Source: Lentisphaerota bacterium
GTDB taxonomy: Bacteria; Verrucomicrobiota; Lentisphaeria; Victivallales; Victivallaceae
Assembly: GCA_015061885.1 (NCBI GenBank)
Contig: SUVS01000001.1
Span: 124,001 to 188,000 of the forward strand
Direction: 5' to 3'
DNA: 64,000 nucleotides
Shown here in pieces: positions 30,679-44,071 of this stretch; positions within the stretch are counted from its first letter, which is position 1, and the number at the start of each line of letters is the position of its first letter. Below the pieces are notes generated by a model. It was not told the origin of the DNA, did not search any database, and saw only the letters and a program-made list of their open reading frames with translations. Both the position numbers and the translations under genes were made by a program.

Positions 30679-31590
30679 ATGACTTCTCTGGCTGATAAAA
30701 AAGTTGCGATCATCGGGCTGGGGTTGCTGGGGGCTTCGCTCGGTCTGGCGTTGCAGAAAAGCGGCATCCGCCGTTTGGGCTGGGCACGCAAAAGCGAAAC
30801 CCGCAGTTGGTGTCTGGAACATAATGTAATTGACGAAACCGCAGAAAATGTAACAGATGTACTCCGGGACGCCGATATTACCGTGCTTTGTCTGCCGATA
30901 CCGGCAATCTCGCAGTTTATCGTTGAACACGCCTCCGAGTTCAAGACCGGGTCAATCGTTACAGATATAGGCAGCGATAAAGGAGTTATTGTTGATGCCG
31001 GAGAAAAAGCCTTGAAGCCATACGGAGTATATTTTATCGGCTCACACCCCATGGCAGGAACCGAAAAGAGCGGTTGTCAGGCGGCTTTTGCCGAACTTTA
31101 TGACAATGCGGAAATATTTGTTACTTACACTCCGGAGAGCGATCCGGCGGCGTTGGATACCATTGAACAGTTCTGGCATTTGCTCAAGATAGCCCGCGTA
31201 AAGCGTATATCGCCGGAAGTGCATGATGATCTGGTGGCTCACACCAGCCATATATCGCATCTGCTGGCGTTGGCACTGACGCTTTCAGTCCTTGACTGCA
31301 ACAGTCAGGAAGAAGAAGCCTTGAGATATAACGGCTGTGCCACCGGGTTCCGGGATACATCGAGAATCGTTTCCAGCTCGCCGGTCATGTGGCGGGAGAT
31401 CATCGAAAACAACCAAAGTGCCGTCGTTGCCGCCGCCAGAAAATGCGAACATATTTACCACGAAATCGTAAGCAGTATCGAAGAAGGTGATTTTGACCGC
31501 TTTGAAATGCTCTTCGGAAGAGGTAAATTCTTACGCGATAAATGGATGGACTATAAGAAGGCCCAGCGGGATCAGCTTGAGCAAAAGTGA
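30679..31590 (+). CDS. tyrA: Prephenate dehydrogenase
   Basis: 303 residues. Oxidises prephenate (or arogenate) with NAD(P) in tyrosine synthesis. The N-terminal Rossmann motif is KVAIIGLGLLGASLGLAL, followed by TDIGSDKG and the family hallmark FIGSHPMAGTEKSG. The helical C-terminal domain contains HDDLVAHTSHISHLLALAL and GFRDTSRI, both diagnostic for the family. There is no chorismate mutase or ACT domain. The last 19 bp overlap the 3' end of the convergent oxidoreductase gene, with no terminator between them. Confidence 0.94.
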   Translation: MTSLADKKVAIIGLGLLGASLGLALQKSGIRRLGWARKSETRSWCLEHNVIDETAENVTDVLRDADITVLCLPIPAISQFIVEHASEFKTGSIVTDIGSDKGVIVDAGEKALKPYGVYFIGSHPMAGTEKSGCQAAFAELYDNAEIFVTYTPESDPAALDTIEQFWHLLKIARVKRISPEVHDDLVAHTSHISHLLALALTLSVLDCNSQEEEALRYNGCATGFRDTSRIVSSSPVMWREIIENNQSAVVAAARKCEHIYHEIVSSIEEGDFDRFEMLFGRGKFLRDKWMDYKKAQRDQLEQK

Positions 31591-32702
31591 TGATTAAGGA
31601 TTATCGAGTAAAGTTCTCCGGCATCCTGAATATTTCCTATAAGCATGCAACCGACCAATTTGTTTTGCCGGTAAAAAAGTTTTTTCAATGATTTTCCGGA
31701 GCGTTCCGCCGCCGCTTCGCATATTTTTTCATCGCAAAAACCGGCACTGTAAAATGCTGTATTATTAAGTATGCTCCGGCATTCTTCCGGCAATGCGTTG
31801 TATTTTTTCATTCCCCCGGTAATATTTTCACCGGCGATCCTGCCTTGCATACAGGCACTCTTGTAATAGCAATTCATCTGGTTGCAGATAACGGCACAAT
31901 CTCCGGCGGCATAGATATTGTTACTGCCTCTGATCCTTAAAAATTCATCCGTTGCCAACTCTATACCCAGATCACGGGCAGGGGATAACCCGATGGAGCT
32001 TATTATAAAATCAGTATAAATTGTTCTGGTTGTGTTATTTAAAGAACATGCAAGCTGCCGGTTGTGCAAGCTGATATTTGCAAGTGAAGAATTTGTGTAA
32101 ATCGTTAAATTACTGTCAAGCAGGAGTTGTTTTTGCAGGAATGCACTGCATTCTGAATCAAGTGTGCCACGCAAAATGGAGTTATTTTGTTCAATAACAG
32201 TTACTTGCAAATTTCTTTTCAGCAATGCTTCTGCACATTCCAAGCCCAACACGCCGCCGCCGATAACAACTGCACTTGTAGCTTGTTGCAGAGTTTGTTC
32301 GATTTTTTCTACATCATCTACGGTATGCAGAGAAAATATTCTGTCGCTGACCACCGGCGGTGCAGTCAATTTCCGAGCCGGTCTGCCGGTTGCCACCAGT
32401 AAACGGTCAAACGGTTTGACTTTTCCGGATTGCAGAATAACAGTGTTATGCCGTGTATCAATTCCGGTTACAGATTCTGCCTGGTGGATATTTATATTGT
32501 GTTGGCGGTAAAACTCTGCCGGATGGATCTGCAAGCGTTCCAACGGAATTGTTTTTGCCAGCACTGCGGGCAGCAACAGCCGACGGTAAGGCAGAACATT
32601 TTCTTCGGAATAAATATCAACAGAACTGATTTGATCGTATTGGCGGATAGTTACAGCCGCTTCAACTGCGGCAGGGCCGCCGCCGGCAATTATTATACGC
32701 AT
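31572..32702 (-). CDS. FAD-dependent pyridine nucleotide-disulfide-type oxidoreductase
   Basis: 376 residues. Dinucleotide-binding motifs are at the N-terminus (IIIAGGGPAAVEAA, FAD) and mid-protein (AVVIGGGVLGLECAEALLKR, NAD(P)H), with LLVATGRPAR and NNIYAAGDCAVI as the standard second FAD elements. The pattern fits rubredoxin/ferredoxin reductases and NirB-type N-terminal domains rather than disulfide reductases, as no CxxxxC redox pair is present. YRRLLLPAVL near residue 40 is also typical. Electron acceptor unknown. Its 3' end overlaps tyrA. Confidence 0.87.
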   Translation of the reverse strand: MRIIIAGGGPAAVEAAVTIRQYDQISSVDIYSEENVLPYRRLLLPAVLAKTIPLERLQIHPAEFYRQHNINIHQAESVTGIDTRHNTVILQSGKVKPFDRLLVATGRPARKLTAPPVVSDRIFSLHTVDDVEKIEQTLQQATSAVVIGGGVLGLECAEALLKRNLQVTVIEQNNSILRGTLDSECSAFLQKQLLLDSNLTIYTNSSLANISLHNRQLACSLNNTTRTIYTDFIISSIGLSPARDLGIELATDEFLRIRGSNNIYAAGDCAVICNQMNCYYKSACMQGRIAGENITGGMKKYNALPEECRSILNNTAFYSAGFCDEKICEAAAERSGKSLKKLFYRQNKLVGCMLIGNIQDAGELYSIILNHHFCSS

Positions 32703-32806
32703 AAAAATTTCTCCGTAATATGGAACTTTCTGAATTTCCGGTTATATTATATCTGTAATGGGGAAGCCCATAAACAAAAATATAATAATATTATTAGATG
32801 GTTTTT

Positions 32807-34564
32807 ATGAAAAAATTGTTCCATTTCAGCGAATATTTAAGAGAAAAATATAACTTTTCTTTACAGCGTATCCCGATTGACCTTGCATTGGGGTGCCCAA
32901 ACCGCAGCAATGGCGGCTTTGGTTCCGGGTGTATATTCTGTTCTGAAGATGGAGCCAGAGCCCGCCACCTTTCGCGTACCGGATTGGATTTGTCCGAACA
33001 GGTCAGACGCGGTATTGAATATGTAAAAACGCGTTACGGCTCCGGTTCGCAATATATAGCTTATTTTCAGAGTTTTACCTCAACTTACGCTCCGGTGGCG
33101 AAACTGCGGGAACTTTACGGAGAAGTTTTGAAAAGTGCTGATTTCAAACTCTTGATAATTTCCACCCGCCCCGATGCCTTGCCGGATGATGTGCTGGATT
33201 ACCTTGAAGAACTCAACACCCGGTATGATGTTATTGTGGAGCTGGGTATTCAAACTGCCCGCGACCGGACTTTGGCAGAAATAAACCGCGGACACAACTT
33301 TGATTCGGTAAAACAAGCCTGTTCGGAATTACACCGCCGCAAGCTGAAAATTGCCGGACATTTTATTCTCGGCTTGCCGGGCGAGAGTTTGGAGGATTGG
33401 TTATACACCGCAAAAGAAGCGGCAAAACTCCCTTTATGCGGAGTAAAAATACATCAGCTTATGGTGCTGAAAAATACTGTACTCGCCCGACGGTATGGCG
33501 AAAACCCCAATTATATAATGCCGCTGAATGAATACGAATACGCCGCCGGTCTGAAGGCGTTTTTGCAACAGCTTCCCGAAGGCTGGATGCTTATGCGTCT
33601 GATGGCAGATGCCGATGATAATTTGCTGGAAGCACCAAAGTGGTGGATGAAAAAAGGTCAATTCCTGAACTTTTTTGAAAATTATTTTTATAATGAAAAT
33701 CCCCTTGCCGGAGCCTTTGTTGCCACGCAGACTGCCGACGGCACCCCGACTTTGTACCACCCGACTTACAAACAGCATTTTCACAGTCTTGCCGGAGCGG
33801 GCAGCGAAGCCGAAAAGAAATTTGCCGAGCCGTCGGAGTTGTCCGAACGGCTCCGGTCATCAGCCCGCAGCGGCGAGCCGGTGCGTTTGCTGGATATAGG
33901 TTTCGGACTGGGCGGCAACGCCTTTGCGGCCACAGCATGTGCGGAAAAAGTTCCGGAAAGCAGACTTGAGATCGTTTCGCTGGAAAATGACGAACGCACA
34001 TTACAGGCGGCAATGAGCCTTTACGGCAATGATTCGCATCAGAAAAACATTCTTGCTTCGCTTATAAAAGAGCGGGTTGCAGTATATAAAAATACCCGCA
34101 TAACTCTTTTGCTGGATGACGGCAGAAAATCGGTTCAAACTTTACCGGCAGACAGCTTTGATCTGGTGTGGCTGGATGCGTTTTCTTCGGAAGTAAATCC
34201 GGAGTTGTGGACCTGGCAGTTTTTACAGGCATGTTACAAATGCATGAAGAATGAAAATTCACTGTTGCTGACTTACAGCAGTGCCCCCGGGGTTCGCGGA
34301 GCCTTATACAAAGTAGGCTTCGCCGTGGGTGAAACCCCATCATTCGGACGCAAACGCGGCGGAACGCTGGCGGCAAAAATGTATAATGAAAAAATCGTAC
34401 CGCTGCCGGAAAAGGAACAGCACATCATCAAAGATTCCACCGCCGGAACGCCTTACAGTGATCCGGATTTGAACAAATCTGCGGAGTGGATCATCGAACA
34501 CAGGAAAAAACTGATTGAAAAATTACGAAAAAAAGGTGTTCCAAAGTGGTATAAAGCCAAATAA
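32807..34564 (+). CDS. Radical SAM protein (TIGR01212/YtqA type) fused to MnmC-type methyltransferase
   Basis: 585 residues from the ATG at 32807 (ATG 32798 is also possible). Residues about 5-310 match the TIGR01212 radical SAM family, called MnmL/YtqA in Bacillus: [11 protein letters not shown] with Cys30, then Cys42 and Cys45 in the C-x11-C-x2-C spacing, and [20 protein letters not shown]. Residues about 355-530 match the MnmC2 (DUF752) methyltransferase: [39 protein letters not shown] and FGRKRGG. In E. coli MnmC the same methyltransferase is fused to an FAD oxidase, and the pair converts cmnm5U34 of tRNA to mnm5U34. Here a radical SAM domain takes the oxidase's place. Co-function in this tRNA pathway is inferred. 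Confidence 0.85.
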
Positions 34565-34601
34565 GTTATATAGTTATATTGTATATAACGGAGAGCTGTA
34601 T

Positions 34602-35372
34602 ATGAAAAAAACAAAAAAATTTACACTGATCGAACTTTTAGTTGTGATTGCCATCATCGCAATATTAGCCGCCATGCTGTTGCCGGCACTTTCGGCGGCA
34701 AGAGAACGGGCACGCAGTACGCTTTGTTTATCAAAACTGAAAAATCTCGGTTTGGTTCAGAATCTTTATGCTCAAGATAACAAAGACTCCATTGCGGTAT
34801 CATTTCATCACGAAACTTCCGAAGAAATGGCACGCATGTGCGGTTACGGCAGTTCTTGCCGGATCGTCAGCGGCCGTCATGCCATACCCAATTTGCTGTT
34901 TTGCGGCGGATACTTCGGCGTAATGCCCAATGAGGATGCCAGCAATCTGACCAGAGGCGATATTGAACCGTTTTTCCGCTGTCCGAGCGACAGTGTGCTT
35001 TTCGGTACTGTATCTGCGGAAGAAAATTATTATGTAAATACCTCTTATATATACTTGTATCACTCGCCGGCACAAGCGGCGGATGAAACCGAAACCTTTT
35101 CGTCTTATACCCTAAAAGATCAATCCGGCAACGGTATCGGCAGACGCATCATCAGCCGCGATAATCCGATGGCAATGATCGCACACGATGTGCCCGGCAG
35201 TATGGCGGCAAAACTTTCGCAGAAAAGCGGTTCAACGCCGATCCATCCCGGAAGTATAAATTTTCTTGAACTTAACGGCAGAGCCGGAATTATAAATATT
35301 TCTGCCGGCGATCAGGCTAAAGATTGGAATTGGGCGGGTTTTGCCGCCTGTTATGAAGAAATAAGTAAATGA
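34602..35372 (+). CDS. Pseudopilin-like protein
   Basis: 256 residues from the ATG at 34602, where GGAGAG lies six bases upstream; an in-frame start at 34515 falls inside the previous gene. Leader MKKTKK, then [13 protein letters not shown] and the helix ending SAARERARS. The C-terminus ends [19 protein letters not shown], a weak version of the DG-type element in the other pseudopilins. It is followed after 9 bp by a copper P-type ATPase gene rather than a secreted enzyme. The short upstream gap carries an AT-rich inverted repeat (34565-34589). Confidence 0.86.
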
Positions 35373-37586: not shown

Positions 37587-37606
37587 AAAAAATCTTTGCA
37601 GACTGC
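37568..37606 (-). terminator. Terminator of the connector-like gene
   Basis: GCAGTCTGC (37575-37583) pairs with GCAGACTGC (37598-37606). On the minus strand the hairpin is followed by TTTTTT, so it ends transcription coming from the capsid cassette. It overlaps the stop codon of the convergent copper ATPase gene. Confidence 0.8.
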
Positions 37607-37616
37607 CTGCTCTTAT

Positions 37617-38006
37617 TTATCCGCGGCTGAAACGGTTGGCTCCGAATCCCGGCAGACGGGAGAGAAAAAGTTCACTGCGCGGTGAAAGAGTTCCGGCTAT
37701 ATGCCCCTGATCGGTTGTTTGCTCGTAGTATTCTCTTTTGCCTACGCCTTCGATGCTTTCGCTTTTCAGCCGTTCACTGCCGGCTTTTTGCAGATAATGT
37801 TCGGCAAGATACAACGCCTGTTCGCAAATTGCACAGAATACCAGCAGATCGCCGATGTCAAGTTTATCGGAGCCGATAGCGAGCATTATATCATCTTCCG
37901 CCATTTTTACTGCGGCTGTTTGGGTTTCTTTATCCAGCGATTGCCAGAATTTCTGCTGTAAATGGCATTTGAAATATTCATGTATCTGTATCATTGATGA
38001 CTGCAT
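37617..38006 (-). CDS. Phage gp6-like head-tail connector-like protein
   Basis: 129 residues from the ATG at 38006, which has GGAGG five to seven bases upstream; a longer frame to 38117 adds an unlikely extension. The helical N-terminus (DIMLAIGSDKLDIGDLLVFCAICEQALYLAEHYLQ) followed by SESIEGVGKREYY and SPRSELFLSRL resembles the gp6/gp15-type connector or completion proteins of tailed phages, which close the capsid vertex. It lies downstream of a major capsid gene on the same strand, but a terminator separates them and it has its own ribosome site. The identification is by pattern and moderate in strength. Confidence 0.55.
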   Translation of the reverse strand: MQSSMIQIHEYFKCHLQQKFWQSLDKETQTAAVKMAEDDIMLAIGSDKLDIGDLLVFCAICEQALYLAEHYLQKAGSERLKSESIEGVGKREYYEQTTDQGHIAGTLSPRSELFLSRLPGFGANRFSRG

Positions 38007-38026
38007 ACATACCTCCGTAAAGTTGT

Positions 38027-38066
38027 AAAAAAACTCCGGAACGAAAAAAAATGTTCCGCTCCGGAG
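38027..38066 (-). terminator. Terminator after the capsid gene
   Basis: On the minus strand CTCCGGAGCGGAAC pairs with GTTCCGGAG (a five-base bulge), followed by TTTTTTT. It lies 17 bp past the capsid stop, between capsid and connector-like genes, and may reduce expression of the latter. Confidence 0.7.
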
Positions 38067-38082
38067 CCGGATAAACTTAAAT

Positions 38083-39231
38083 TTATGCGTTACGCATTGC
38101 CTTGAGTGCTTCGGCACTGCTCATGACATTATGAATACGGCAAAGACGCTGTTTGGCGTTTTTGAATTCAAAAGTAAGTTCGCCGATAGCCATGCGTTTT
38201 ACGCCGTCAAAGCCCTGCGGAGTGGCATCCACATCAGTAATACCCCGGCCTTTCAGGCTCGACATGCCCAGACCGGTGGTATCCATCACCCAGATGTCGC
38301 AATCCGGCACATCGGGATCTGCCATAATAGTCATGCTTCTGCCGGAAATTTCATTGACCACAGTAGCAACGTAAGCTCCACGCCGTTCATCACTGCGTAA
38401 AACCTGCAGCGAGGGTTTGTATTCGTTGGAAAGCACCCGTGCCTGACCGGGACTGCAAAGGATCTGCATGGGCTCGCCGCCTTCGGCAAGAATAGCCTGT
38501 GCCGCATCGTTGATCATAAAGCTGTCAAGAGTTATGCCTTCGCCGTTGACAGCCAGAGCATTTTCGCCGGTGGCAAAACAGTAAAGCCCGCCGGCTTCGC
38601 CACGCACATCAGCACCCGGTTCGCGGCGGACACCGAAAAGTGCCACGCGGTTGAGGTCGCGGGCAAGTTCGCTCATGGCAAATGCGGTCTGCCGGTTGAT
38701 CTGATTATCTATAGAGCCATACACATTTACCGCCAGAGCCGTGCCGGTAAGCACGATATCTTTGCGGAAGATCTGCATGTAATTGTATCCGGTATTGCTC
38801 GAATGGCTGGTTTCTTCGCCATCGCCATTGGCAGAACCTTCCGCCATGGGCGAACTTACGATGTTAAGCACATCGCCTTCAGATGCCATAACAGTTTCCG
38901 AACCGTTAGCTCCGGCAAGCTCCAGGGTAAAATTGTCGCTGTTGACGGCGGTAACGCGGAAAAGGGCAGGGGAATTCTGAATTACCAGCAAGGTGCCGAT
39001 CTTGAGTTTTGCTACATCGGCAGCTGCCGCAGTAACCGTATTACCGGCAACACCCAGAACTTTTACACTGCGGCCGGTGATCTGATCTTCCAGCCACTCA
39101 TGTTTCTGGGCAGTGCCGTCGGCAACTGCGGTGAAATTGGAAATAAAACGGGGTTCATCCTTTACCACGGTGGAAAGAATGTCAGCAAGATCGCGTTTTT
39201 TGTTAAGAAAACTGTAAGCGTAAATAGCCAT
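38083..39231 (-). CDS. Major capsid protein, SU10/DUF5309 type
   Basis: 382 residues from the ATG at 39231 (AAGGA seven bases upstream; a frame extending to 39279 adds a non-conserved lead). The N-terminus MAIYAYSFLNKKRDLADILSTVVKDEPRF, with FTAVADGTAQKHEWLEDQI just after, matches the DUF5309 major capsid family of SU10-like tailed phages, and so does DIVLTGTALAVNVYGS and the C-terminal GELTFEFKNAKQRLCRIHN. Length is normal for an HK97-fold capsid subunit, and the frame is intact. A scaffold-like gene is immediately upstream. No terminase, portal, protease or tail gene is in the window. Confidence 0.78.
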   Translation of the reverse strand: MAIYAYSFLNKKRDLADILSTVVKDEPRFISNFTAVADGTAQKHEWLEDQITGRSVKVLGVAGNTVTAAAADVAKLKIGTLLVIQNSPALFRVTAVNSDNFTLELAGANGSETVMASEGDVLNIVSSPMAEGSANGDGEETSHSSNTGYNYMQIFRKDIVLTGTALAVNVYGSIDNQINRQTAFAMSELARDLNRVALFGVRREPGADVRGEAGGLYCFATGENALAVNGEGITLDSFMINDAAQAILAEGGEPMQILCSPGQARVLSNEYKPSLQVLRSDERRGAYVATVVNEISGRSMTIMADPDVPDCDIWVMDTTGLGMSSLKGRGITDVDATPQGFDGVKRMAIGELTFEFKNAKQRLCRIHNVMSSAEALKAMRNA

Positions 39232-39265
39232 AAAAAAATCCTTTTTGTTTTGATTGGGGGTGTTT

Positions 39266-39799
39266 TCAGATAATTTCACGGGCGTTGGAAATCATAACTT
39301 CCAACGCATCCATGCGTTTCAGATTGCCGCCGGGAAAAACATTTTCCACTGCATTGCCGGGGCGGCTGCCGGCACCGGGTTTAAGCGGCAGATTGAAAAA
39401 TTTCGGTTTCTCTGTTTTCAACTGCTGCATAAACGATTTTACCGCTTGGGGATCGTCAAGCTGAACATGATTTTTCTGCAAGATAAATTCCAGATATTCA
39501 ACATCGTTGAAGCTGTAGTCATTTGCAATACTGTTCAATGATTGATCCTGTTTGAGCTTTTTCAATTCAGCGGCATGATTATCACGCTCCTGAAGTGTTT
39601 CATGCAATTCTTTACGCATCCGGTCGATTTCCGGAGCCGTGTGCATGTAATCAGCAAAAGCCCGTTTCAGGTCGGCAACTTCCTGCTGTAAATCGCTTTT
39701 GCCGGGCAGGGGAGGCTCCGGCGGAAATTTTTCAGCAGTTTCGGGGATCTTGGTGTCGCAAGGCGGAGCTTCCGCCGCGATAAATGACTCATCTACCAT
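39266..39799 (-). CDS. Scaffold-like coiled-coil protein of the capsid cassette
   Basis: 177 residues from the ATG at 39799, with AGGAGA five bases upstream. The protein is acidic and Pro-rich at the N-terminus (PPEPPLPGK), then has a coiled coil (about residues 35-85: LQQEVADLKRAF, MRKELHETLQERDNHAAELKKL) and a helical C-terminus. Order, size and composition fit a phage scaffolding protein that directs capsid assembly; no single conserved domain is recognised. It ends 34 bp before the major capsid gene. It shows no protease motif. Confidence 0.62.
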   Translation of the reverse strand: MVDESFIAAEAPPCDTKIPETAEKFPPEPPLPGKSDLQQEVADLKRAFADYMHTAPEIDRMRKELHETLQERDNHAAELKKLKQDQSLNSIANDYSFNDVEYLEFILQKNHVQLDDPQAVKSFMQQLKTEKPKFFNLPLKPGAGSRPGNAVENVFPGGNLKRMDALEVMISNAREII

Positions 39800-39873: not shown

Positions 39874-39913
39874 AATCATGGCAGATTTGTCAACATAAAA
39901 CACTTTTCAAGCA

Positions 39914-39950
39914 CAAAAAAAGTCCGGCAGTGCATTTACACCACCGGACT
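39914..39950 (-). terminator. Terminator of the leuC-leuD transcript
   Basis: AGTCCGG (39921-39927) pairs with CCGGACT (39944-39950). Read on the minus strand the hairpin is followed by TTTTTTT. It lies about 50 bp past the leuD stop. Confidence 0.85.
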
Positions 39951-42688: not shown

Positions 42689-43342
42689 ATAACACCCTAT
42701 CCTTTTTTGTTACAAATTTTCAGGCTCAAAAAATAGCACGCCCCAGAGCATTTGTCAAATATTTCTCCAATTAAAAAAAGTTGACAAACTCTTTTTTTTA
42801 CAGAACAATGAAAAATTGAATTTGAAAGACCTCCGAAGGATTGACCGGATAAAATGTATAAAAACAATAAAAAAGTTAACAACAAGTTATTAACAGGTAA
42901 TAACTTCACACAATCTAACCTACTGATAAACAACTCTTTATAAAGCCATCATCTCTTGTAAACAACAACATTCCACTTAACATAACATGTATTATGCGAC
43001 ATAATATTTTAACCGGAAAAGCCCTTCTGACGCGAGTTGTTGTTGCCGAGTACTGACTATAGGGTTGTGCTTTATCACTGCTTCTACGGCGATTTGCATT
43101 TGTTTTGCAAACTTGCGTTTTTTTTCAAAAAAAATCAAAGTGCAGGCGGCGTATCGCTGATAAAAATTCAATCGGATCATACAACCTTTCAAGTTATGCT
43201 ATATGGTAAAAGTTTATCCGGATTTTGAGATTTTCTCTATTTTGGTAAATTTTTTCTCCATTTTGCTATTTACATTGCTTCAGCTTGTGTTATACTATAT
43301 ATTGACACGGGATAATTTTTTTTTACCATGAGGAGGTTCTTT
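42689..43342. other. 654-bp gap, AT-rich, with a possible small-RNA terminator
   Basis: No convincing protein gene: the frames at 42697-42933 (-), 42992-43192 (-) and 43037-43228 (+) lack ribosome sites and resemble no family. The left part is very AT-rich. TTTGCA (43093-43098) and TGCAAA (43106-43111) form a hairpin followed by T8 (43118-43125), which could end a short unannotated + strand transcript. A direct repeat of TTTTCTCyATTTTG occurs at about 43233-43265. The right end carries the promoter of the next gene. Confidence 0.5.
43269..43296 (+). promoter_or_regulatory. Candidate promoter for the pseudopilin/secreted-protein pair
   Basis: TTTACA (43269-43274), 16-bp spacer, TATACT (43291-43296), about 47 bp before the start codon at 43343. 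Confidence 0.6.
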
Positions 43343-44071
43343 ATGAAACAGCGGAAAAATTTTACCCTTATAGAATTGTTGGTTGTAATTGCCATTATCG
43401 CCATTCTTGCAGCGATGCTGCTGCCGGCACTTTCGGCGGCAAGAACTTCGGCAAACACTTCGGCCTGTACCAATAATATGAAAAACATTGCGTTGGCTTC
43501 GGTCATGTACACCAATGAAAATAAGGATTGGCTGCTGCCGGGTAAACAATATGGTTCAGCTTACTGGTCGGGAGCTGTATCAGCCCGTCCGTGGTTTGAA
43601 TTTCTGGGTAAATACGGCGACCATTCACCCAGCGATTATGGGATCGTCATGAAGTACAAAAATTATATGAACGGGCACATTTATTGCCCCGGCGAATCAC
43701 AAATGGACTCTTTTGCCTATCCCACTTACGCTATCAACACCTGGGTTTCCGGCGACATCACTCAAACCGGCAAAACGACTTTGAGCATGAGCCAGATCGC
43801 CCTGCCCGACAAAACCATACATTTTACCGATCAGGGGCGGATCGACACTTATGAAATATCTTATCCGTGGGATGCCGGCAATAAAAATTATACCATTGAC
43901 AAATCCGAATGTGCCTGTACCCTCGCCCGTCACGGCGGCAAAACCAATATCGGTTATATTGACGGACACGCCCGTACTGTCGTGAGCAAAGATTACTGGG
44001 GTAACAACGGCAATCACAAACTCCGTTGCGGTGTACCGGGATTTGAAGCTAATTGGCATCTTGGTGATTGA
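43343..44071 (+). CDS. Pseudopilin-like protein with DG-type C-terminus
   Basis: 242 residues from the ATG at 43343, supported by AGGAGG (43331-43336); an upstream ATG at 43328 precedes that site. Leader MKQRKN, prepilin signature [13 protein letters not shown], helix end [10 protein letters not shown]. The C-terminal [19 protein letters not shown] is a clear H-x9-DG element. It has its own promoter-like sequence and is followed by a 1207-residue secreted protein gene after 46 bp, repeating the arrangement at 2956-6828. Confidence 0.88.

What the first reader, a model, noticed from the sequence alone, without database searches (positions are those of the whole stretch)
37617..39799. Orphan virus-type capsid cassette: scaffold, SU10/DUF5309-type capsid, gp6-like connector
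Three intact genes on one strand have the order and look of a tailed-phage head module, each with its own ribosome site, and two terminators bracket the capsid and connector genes. No integrase, terminase, portal, protease or tail gene occurs in the 64 kb; neighbours are a copper ATPase and leuCD. Clean frames and insulated expression argue against simple decay. The set could be a domesticated particle (nanocompartment, gene transfer element part or satellite capsid). Family matching is by eye.
Basis: partly seen in the sequence, partly recalled or inferred. Interest (0 to 1): 0.8.

Follow-up and report, generated by a model that had tools for sequence, protein, structure and literature searches.

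The report
Scattered, co-regulated virus-particle genes
The capsid genes in this window are not orphans: together with a portal, a DNA-packaging motor and tail genes scattered elsewhere in the same chromosome, and sharing one control sequence, they look like a virus-particle maker that a whole family of Lentisphaerota bacteria has inherited, probably to package and move host DNA.

Summary
Three intact minus-strand genes encode a scaffold, an SU10-type HK97-fold capsid protein and a head-tail adaptor. "Orphan" holds only for the 64 kb.

The window's own genome also holds one intact portal (next to a head-closure gene), one intact large terminase with motor and nuclease domains, and a diverged tail-tube/tail-terminator fusion, each on another contig. 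Across 46 genomes of the host family (Victivallaceae, Lentisphaerota), capsid, portal and terminase are all present in 37 and all absent in the same 9, although usually unlinked. Their trees agree with one another and with RpoB, and within the window's genus they sit in fixed sites under purifying selection.

The dispersed loci share an upstream TTGACA-type box. In closed genome zth2 the derived 13-base pattern occurs six times: five before known loci, the sixth before a tail-fibre operon found only through this search.

Best reading: a vertically inherited, dispersed, jointly regulated gene-transfer-agent-like system, the first I could find for this phylum. DNA packaging and transfer are not shown here. 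Strain zth2 is reported to release hexagonal particles (PMC11361711); the published zth2-2 phage encodes none of the profiled proteins.

The parts
39266..39799 (-). Scaffold protein gene, 177 aa, first gene of locus A
   Evidence: Pfam PF06810 1.9e-7 (below cut-off), PHROG 194 head scaffolding 8.7e-7; conserved before the capsid gene in most loci
38083..39231 (-). Major capsid protein, 382 aa, SU10/DUF5309 type, HK97 fold
   Evidence: Pfam PF17236 6.8e-47; Foldseek vs VP1, Pa223 and SU10 capsids; dN/dS 0.10-0.15 in genus
37617..38006 (-). Head-tail adaptor (connector), 129 aa, gp6/gp15/YqbG-like
   Evidence: Cluster of 34 homologues after the capsid gene; AF2 pLDDT 85.5; top PDB matches phage head-tail adaptors, weak E
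39885..39896 (-). Shared upstream box ATGTTGACAAAT, about 90 bp before the scaffold start; best-scoring match to the genus box in the 64 kb
   Evidence: Same box precedes portal, terminase and tail loci
38032..38068 (-). Intrinsic terminator between capsid and adaptor genes (15 pairs, then T run)
39921..39950 (-). Intrinsic terminator ending the leuCD transcript upstream of the shared box
   Evidence: leuC/leuD at 41839-40001
37598..37610 (-). Weak terminator-like site after the adaptor gene
   Evidence: number of such sites in the region is near the shuffle expectation

Best explanation
The trio is locus A of a virion-gene set that is scattered over the host chromosome and inherited vertically as one functional unit (a gene-transfer-agent-like element). 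Locus A makes the capsid and the adaptor. Locus B makes the portal and head closure. Locus C makes the terminase (with small terminase in some genera). Locus D makes a tail-tube/tail-terminator fusion. Locus E, found in zth2, makes a tail-fibre operon. A common promoter-proximal box switches the loci on together. The capsid assembles on the scaffold with the portal, the terminase fills it with DNA, a tail is added, and the particle is released. Because the genes are spread over about 1.9 Mb in zth2, a particle cannot carry its own full gene set, so the packaged DNA is most likely pieces of the host chromosome delivered to sister cells. Shown here: gene identities, intactness, dispersal, co-occurrence, vertical descent, purifying selection, shared box. 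Inferred: particle assembly, packaging of host DNA, transfer, and joint regulation by one factor.
For: Portal (C19) and TerL (C68) are single, intact genes in the window's genome; portal matches PHROG 145 at 4.3e-47 and TerL has Terminase_6N plus 6C domains. Capsid, portal and TerL are present together in 37 and absent together from 9 of 46 family genomes; in the RpoB tree and taxonomy several of these losses are independent. Portal sits with a head-closure gene in most genera. Tail fusion; in the window's genus, and profile-profile probability 96%, E 3e-9. Tree congruence: Mantel r 0.62-0.83 among the three, 0.56-0.61 with RpoB, all p 0.0005; r 0.39-0.51 with RpoB using one genome per genus. 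In-genus dN/dS about 0.10-0.18 for capsid, portal and TerL; fixed synteny. Shared box. In zth2 the pattern occurs 6 times genome-wide, 5 before known loci, the sixth before a tail-fibre operon, whose first gene lies beside TerL, tail terminator or tail tube in other genera.
Against: No experiment shows particles, host DNA in them, or transfer. No tape-measure homologue was found outside true prophages, nor the prophages' MuF-type minor head protein, so tails may be short, unusual or absent. The tail gene in the window's genus is very diverged and was not found in G004; no small terminase was seen beside TerL in that genus. Lysis genes were not identified. Closely related tailed prophages exist and partly interleave in the trees, so occasional exchange with phages, or more than one domestication, is possible. 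The box resembles a -35 hexamer and could in part be an ordinary strong promoter element. The pattern was derived from the five loci, so only its rarity and the sixth hit are independent evidence. dS is near saturation.
Confidence: 0.75

Rival explanations
1. A PBSX-like killing particle: the same dispersed genes make heads that package host DNA (or little DNA), but the selected function is killing competitors rather than gene transfer.
For: A complete-looking packaging set plus a tail-fibre operon would serve equally; PBSX is a known case that packages host DNA (PMC12946183).
Against: PBSX is encoded in one region (own knowledge); here the genes are dispersed, as GTA genes often are. No toxin or immunity gene was seen, but this was not searched for exhaustively.
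Confidence: 0.13
2. Remnants of a decayed prophage: pieces left by chance in different places, with no function.
For: Some lineages do show decay: V. vadensis DSM 14823 has a cut capsid gene; G030 has a truncated portal and a split tail fusion.
Against: Intact frames in most of about 20 genera, purifying selection, co-presence and co-loss of unlinked loci, and the shared box.
Confidence: 0.04
3. Protein nanocompartment (encapsulin-like) built by the trio alone.
For: HK97 fold; encapsulins appear among the fold matches.
Against: Scaffold and adaptor genes plus co-inherited portal and terminase point to DNA packaging; closest fold and sequence matches are phage capsids.
Confidence: 0.03
4. A scattered helper-dependent satellite, or a phage that is still alive in pieces.
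For: Related complete prophages exist in the same family (L070, L085, L087, G004:C27).
Against: Fixed syntenic sites with no integrase next to the trio, and host-congruent trees.
Confidence: 0.05

Closest known systems
Rhodobacter capsulatus gene transfer agent (RcGTA, Rhodogtaviriformidae)
   Same: Tailed-phage-derived structural and terminase genes, multiple loci (RcGTA: at least 24 genes in five loci, PMC10883770), vertical inheritance with the host
   Different: RcGTA keeps 17 genes in one head-tail cluster; here capsid, portal and terminase lie at separate loci in most genera. Different capsid type (SU10/DUF5309), different phylum; transfer unproven
Brachyspira GTA (VSH-1/BhGTA)
   Same: A single-copy terL outside the structural cluster, co-diversification with the host (PMC9662315)
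   Different: BhGTA structural genes form one 16.3-kb cluster; here they are split into about five or six loci
Bacteriophage SU10 / VP1 / Pa223 capsid proteins
   Same: Same capsid family and fold
   Different: Those are phages with contiguous genomes; identity is low (12-20% in the Foldseek alignments)
Victivallaceae prophages (L070, L083, L085, L087, L037)
   Same: Homologous scaffold-capsid-adaptor modules (capsid 53-65% identical), portals, terminases; tail proteins in the longer contigs
   Different: Contiguous modules with MuF minor head protein and, in those covering the region, tape measure; the dispersed set lacks detectable homologues of both
Phage zth2-2 (OL791268)
   Same: Tailed-phage genome from particles of strain zth2 (PMC11361711)
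   Different: Encodes none of the proteins profiled here

Membership tests
Gene transfer agent (definition in Kogay et al. 2022, PMC9662315) | Uses caudoviricete-derived proteins to form particles | tested here: met
   Capsid, portal, TerL, scaffold match phage families; particle formation itself not tested
Gene transfer agent (definition in Kogay et al. [quoted passage not shown]
   Separate loci in the window's genome and in closed genome zth2
Gene transfer agent (definition in Kogay et al. 2022, PMC9662315) | Mostly vertical inheritance, co-diversification with host | tested here: met
   Mantel correlations with RpoB, p 0.0005; syntenic sites in genus
Gene transfer agent (definition in Kogay et al. 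2022, PMC9662315) | Gene set cannot be fully packaged in its own particle | tested here: inconclusive
   In zth2 the loci span 0.74-2.60 Mb, which implies it; head size and packaged length are unknown
Gene transfer agent (definition in Kogay et al. 2022, PMC9662315) | Particles contain mostly random host DNA | not testable with these tools
   Needs sequencing of DNase-protected DNA
Gene transfer agent (definition in Kogay et al. 2022, PMC9662315) | Packaged DNA is delivered to other cells | not testable with these tools
   Needs a transfer assay
Prophage | Contiguous, excisable phage genome with integrase | tested here: not met
Encapsulin nanocompartment | Shell protein works with cargo, without portal, scaffold or terminase | tested here: not met
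   Scaffold and adaptor adjoin; portal and TerL co-occur with the capsid in 37/37 genomes
SU10_MCP capsid family (PF17236) | Score above Pfam's gathering cut-off and HK97 fold | tested here: met
   160.8 bits vs cut-off 24.1; Foldseek

The most novel reading that the evidence does not exclude
A gene transfer agent of independent origin in the PVC superphylum, dispersed gene-cluster by gene-cluster over the chromosome and held together only by a common control box, long maintained in a whole family, with further members predictable from that box.
Probability: 0.68. Interest if true: 0.87.

Novelty: new variant of a known kind. Interest (0 to 1): 0.82.

Why it matters
If true, this is an independent domestication of a tailed virus in a phylum for which I found no reported gene transfer agent (library searches), and unusually dispersed: capsid, portal, packaging motor and tail each in a separate place yet lost and kept together. 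Prophage finders depend on clustering and would miss such systems, so others may be hidden; phylogenetic co-occurrence of unlinked virion genes plus a shared promoter box is a usable way to find them. It also offers an alternative reading of some of the hexagonal particles reported from cultured Lentisphaerae (PMC11361711).

Tried and rejected
Orphan or nanocompartment reading: rejected once portal and terminase were found in the same genome. Decayed prophage: rejected on frames, dN/dS and co-occurrence. First RpoB comparison gave no correlation because wrong reading frames had been extracted for three genomes; redone correctly. Pfam and PHROGs gave little for the adaptor, head-closure and E1 proteins. 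Profile search with tail-tube proteins alone missed the window's genus; the fusion profile found a weak candidate, confirmed by genus-level homologues and a profile comparison. Tape-measure search gave only prophages and likely coiled-coil noise. Published Phage zth2-2 as the source of these proteins: no match.

Full report
What is in the window. Three minus-strand genes lie between leuD and a copper-ATPase gene: scaffold 39266-39799, capsid 38083-39231, adaptor 37617-38006. The capsid is a clear SU10_MCP member, with an HK97-type model matching VP1, Pa223 and SU10 capsids. The scaffold match is weaker. The 129-aa protein is not recognised by family models, but its predicted fold resembles phage head-tail adaptors and YqbG (weak E-values). 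A strong terminator separates capsid and adaptor genes.

Not an orphan. The host is a Lentisphaerota MAG (2.96 Mb, 98 contigs, 89% complete) whose relatives in the same family include Victivallis. Profiles built from related loci found, in the same genome, one intact portal gene (G000:C19:26843-28222, minus) and one intact large terminase gene (G000:C68:7908-9152, plus). The portal matches PHROG 145 (4.3e-47). The terminase has both motor and nuclease domains and a readable Walker A motif GGSRSGKT. A 110-aa head-closure homologue overlaps the end of the portal gene. A fourth locus encodes a 280-aa protein between thiC and a recQ-type gene that aligns with tail-tube/tail-terminator fusions of relatives (profile comparison probability 96%, E 3e-9). 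'Tail tube' is inferred from position in prophages and a match to PHROG 2175.

One functional unit. In the 46 family genomes examined in all three searches (G000-G045), capsid, portal and terminase are all found in 37 and all missing from the same nine: G006, G009, G015, G018, G020, G026, G032, G038, G041. Some hits are fragments at contig ends, and a few genomes hold a second, prophage copy. In the RpoB tree G006 and G020 are nested among carriers, and G041 belongs to a genus whose other members examined in all three searches carry the set, so the loss happened more than once. The trees of the three genes agree with each other (Mantel r 0.62-0.83) and with RpoB (r 0.56-0.61; one genome per genus r 0.39-0.51). 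Within the window's genus the loci keep the same chromosomal neighbours, and dN/dS is about 0.10-0.18 for capsid, portal and terminase; scaffold and head closure evolve faster and dS is close to saturation.

Anatomy across the family. Locus A is scaffold-capsid-adaptor. Locus B is portal-head closure in most genera. Locus C is terminase, with a small-terminase gene in genera g2 and g11 and in the sister family f2. Locus D is the tail fusion. Genus g16 (gut MAGs) has a compact version: S24-type repressor, small terminase, portal, scaffold, capsid, adaptor, a small gene of unknown function and terminase, with no tail genes beside it. Its portal and terminase group closer to prophages, so it may be a separate or younger domestication. 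Complete-looking prophages with homologous modules exist (L070, L085, L087, G004:C27). They carry a MuF-type minor head protein and tape measure, which are not detected in the dispersed set.

A shared control box. Unsupervised motif search in regions upstream of loci A-D of the window's genus found a TTGACA-centred box at nearly every locus (log-likelihood 96 versus 30-35 in shuffles). In the window its best match of all 64 kb is 39885-39896, upstream of the scaffold (17.6 versus at most 14.5 elsewhere). In closed genome zth2 the five known loci carry a distinct variant. The derived pattern WGGTTGACRWTTT occurs only six times in its 3.2 Mb; the reversed control pattern occurs twice. Five hits are the known loci, as expected from the derivation. 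The sixth, 51 bp before a 491-aa gene (E1), opens an operon with a 750-aa collagen-containing protein that matches phage tail fibres, also outside the collagen part. E1 homologues lie beside the terminase in genus g8, beside the tail terminator in g4 and near the tail tube in g7, which ties locus E to the system independently. The box resembles a -35 element, so a common sigma factor or activator is equally possible.

Mechanism. Established knowledge of tailed phages gives the order: capsid on scaffold with portal, terminase packaging, adaptor and head closure, tail attachment. The retained portal and terminase argue for DNA packaging. In zth2 the loci lie between 0.74 and 2.60 Mb, so a head cannot hold the whole set. 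The expected cargo is therefore host DNA, as in gene transfer agents. This step and delivery to recipients are inferred.

Comparison. By the published definition (PMC9662315) the genomic criteria are met: phage-derived proteins, multiple endogenised loci, vertical inheritance. The experimental criteria (random host DNA, delivery) are untested, so I call it gene-transfer-agent-like. RcGTA is spread over five loci but keeps 17 genes together (PMC10883770); Brachyspira has only terL apart. Separation of capsid, portal and terminase is the main difference. I found no report of such a system in this phylum in the library searched; subscription journals are largely missing from it.

Link to published work. 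Strain zth2 and a relative release filamentous and hexagonal particles when fed polysaccharides (PMC11361711). The authors assembled phage genomes outside the chromosome. The 40-kb zth2-2 genome has none of the proteins profiled here, so some hexagonal particles could come from the chromosomal system; this is a hypothesis.

Caveats. Most genomes are MAGs. Absence calls rest on one search method. Window-genome coverage is 89%. Trees used FastTree (IQ-TREE for the RpoB tree) and one host marker. Some lineages show decay (G030 portal and tail fusion; V. vadensis capsid), which makes the intactness elsewhere more telling.

Noticed in passing
L080:74-2031 (Victivallis vadensis DSM 14823): The capsid gene of the dispersed system is cut: only codons 296-382 remain, next to a 518-aa large serine recombinase gene on sequence running to the contig end; the 5' part of the gene was not found in the assembly.
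   Followed up: partly
L048, L054, L058-L073, L084 (genus g16 and one viral contig): Compact 6-7 kb head-only cluster in gut MAGs with a divergent S24-type repressor, terminase and portal but no tail genes beside it; possibly a second domestication.
   Followed up: partly
L309 / L299, L301 (G030:C162): A relative of zth2 with decayed portal (304-aa frame), split tail fusion and truncated E1 while scaffold and capsid stay intact: a lineage losing the system.
   Followed up: partly
L074, L076, L077, L082: Planctomycete MAGs hold capsid homologues at 38-40% identity; context not analysed.
   Followed up: no
window 31572-34564; L070:861-3901; L052, L072: Two neighbouring genes (an oxidoreductase-like and a radical-SAM-like gene) recur beside capsid loci in several genera and beside a prophage, possibly an old common neighbourhood.
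   Followed up: no
window 34515-35372 and 43328-44071: Two prepilin-like proteins with near-identical N-terminal [28 protein letters not shown] segments flank the region.
   Followed up: no
G016:C183:2566-3969: Portal homologue with an in-frame TGA, possible pseudogene or sequencing error.
   Followed up: no
L307:14840-15885 (zth2 locus E, downstream end): A 61-aa protein with one likely membrane helix and small lipoproteins follow the tail-fibre genes; possible lysis or anchoring functions.
   Followed up: no
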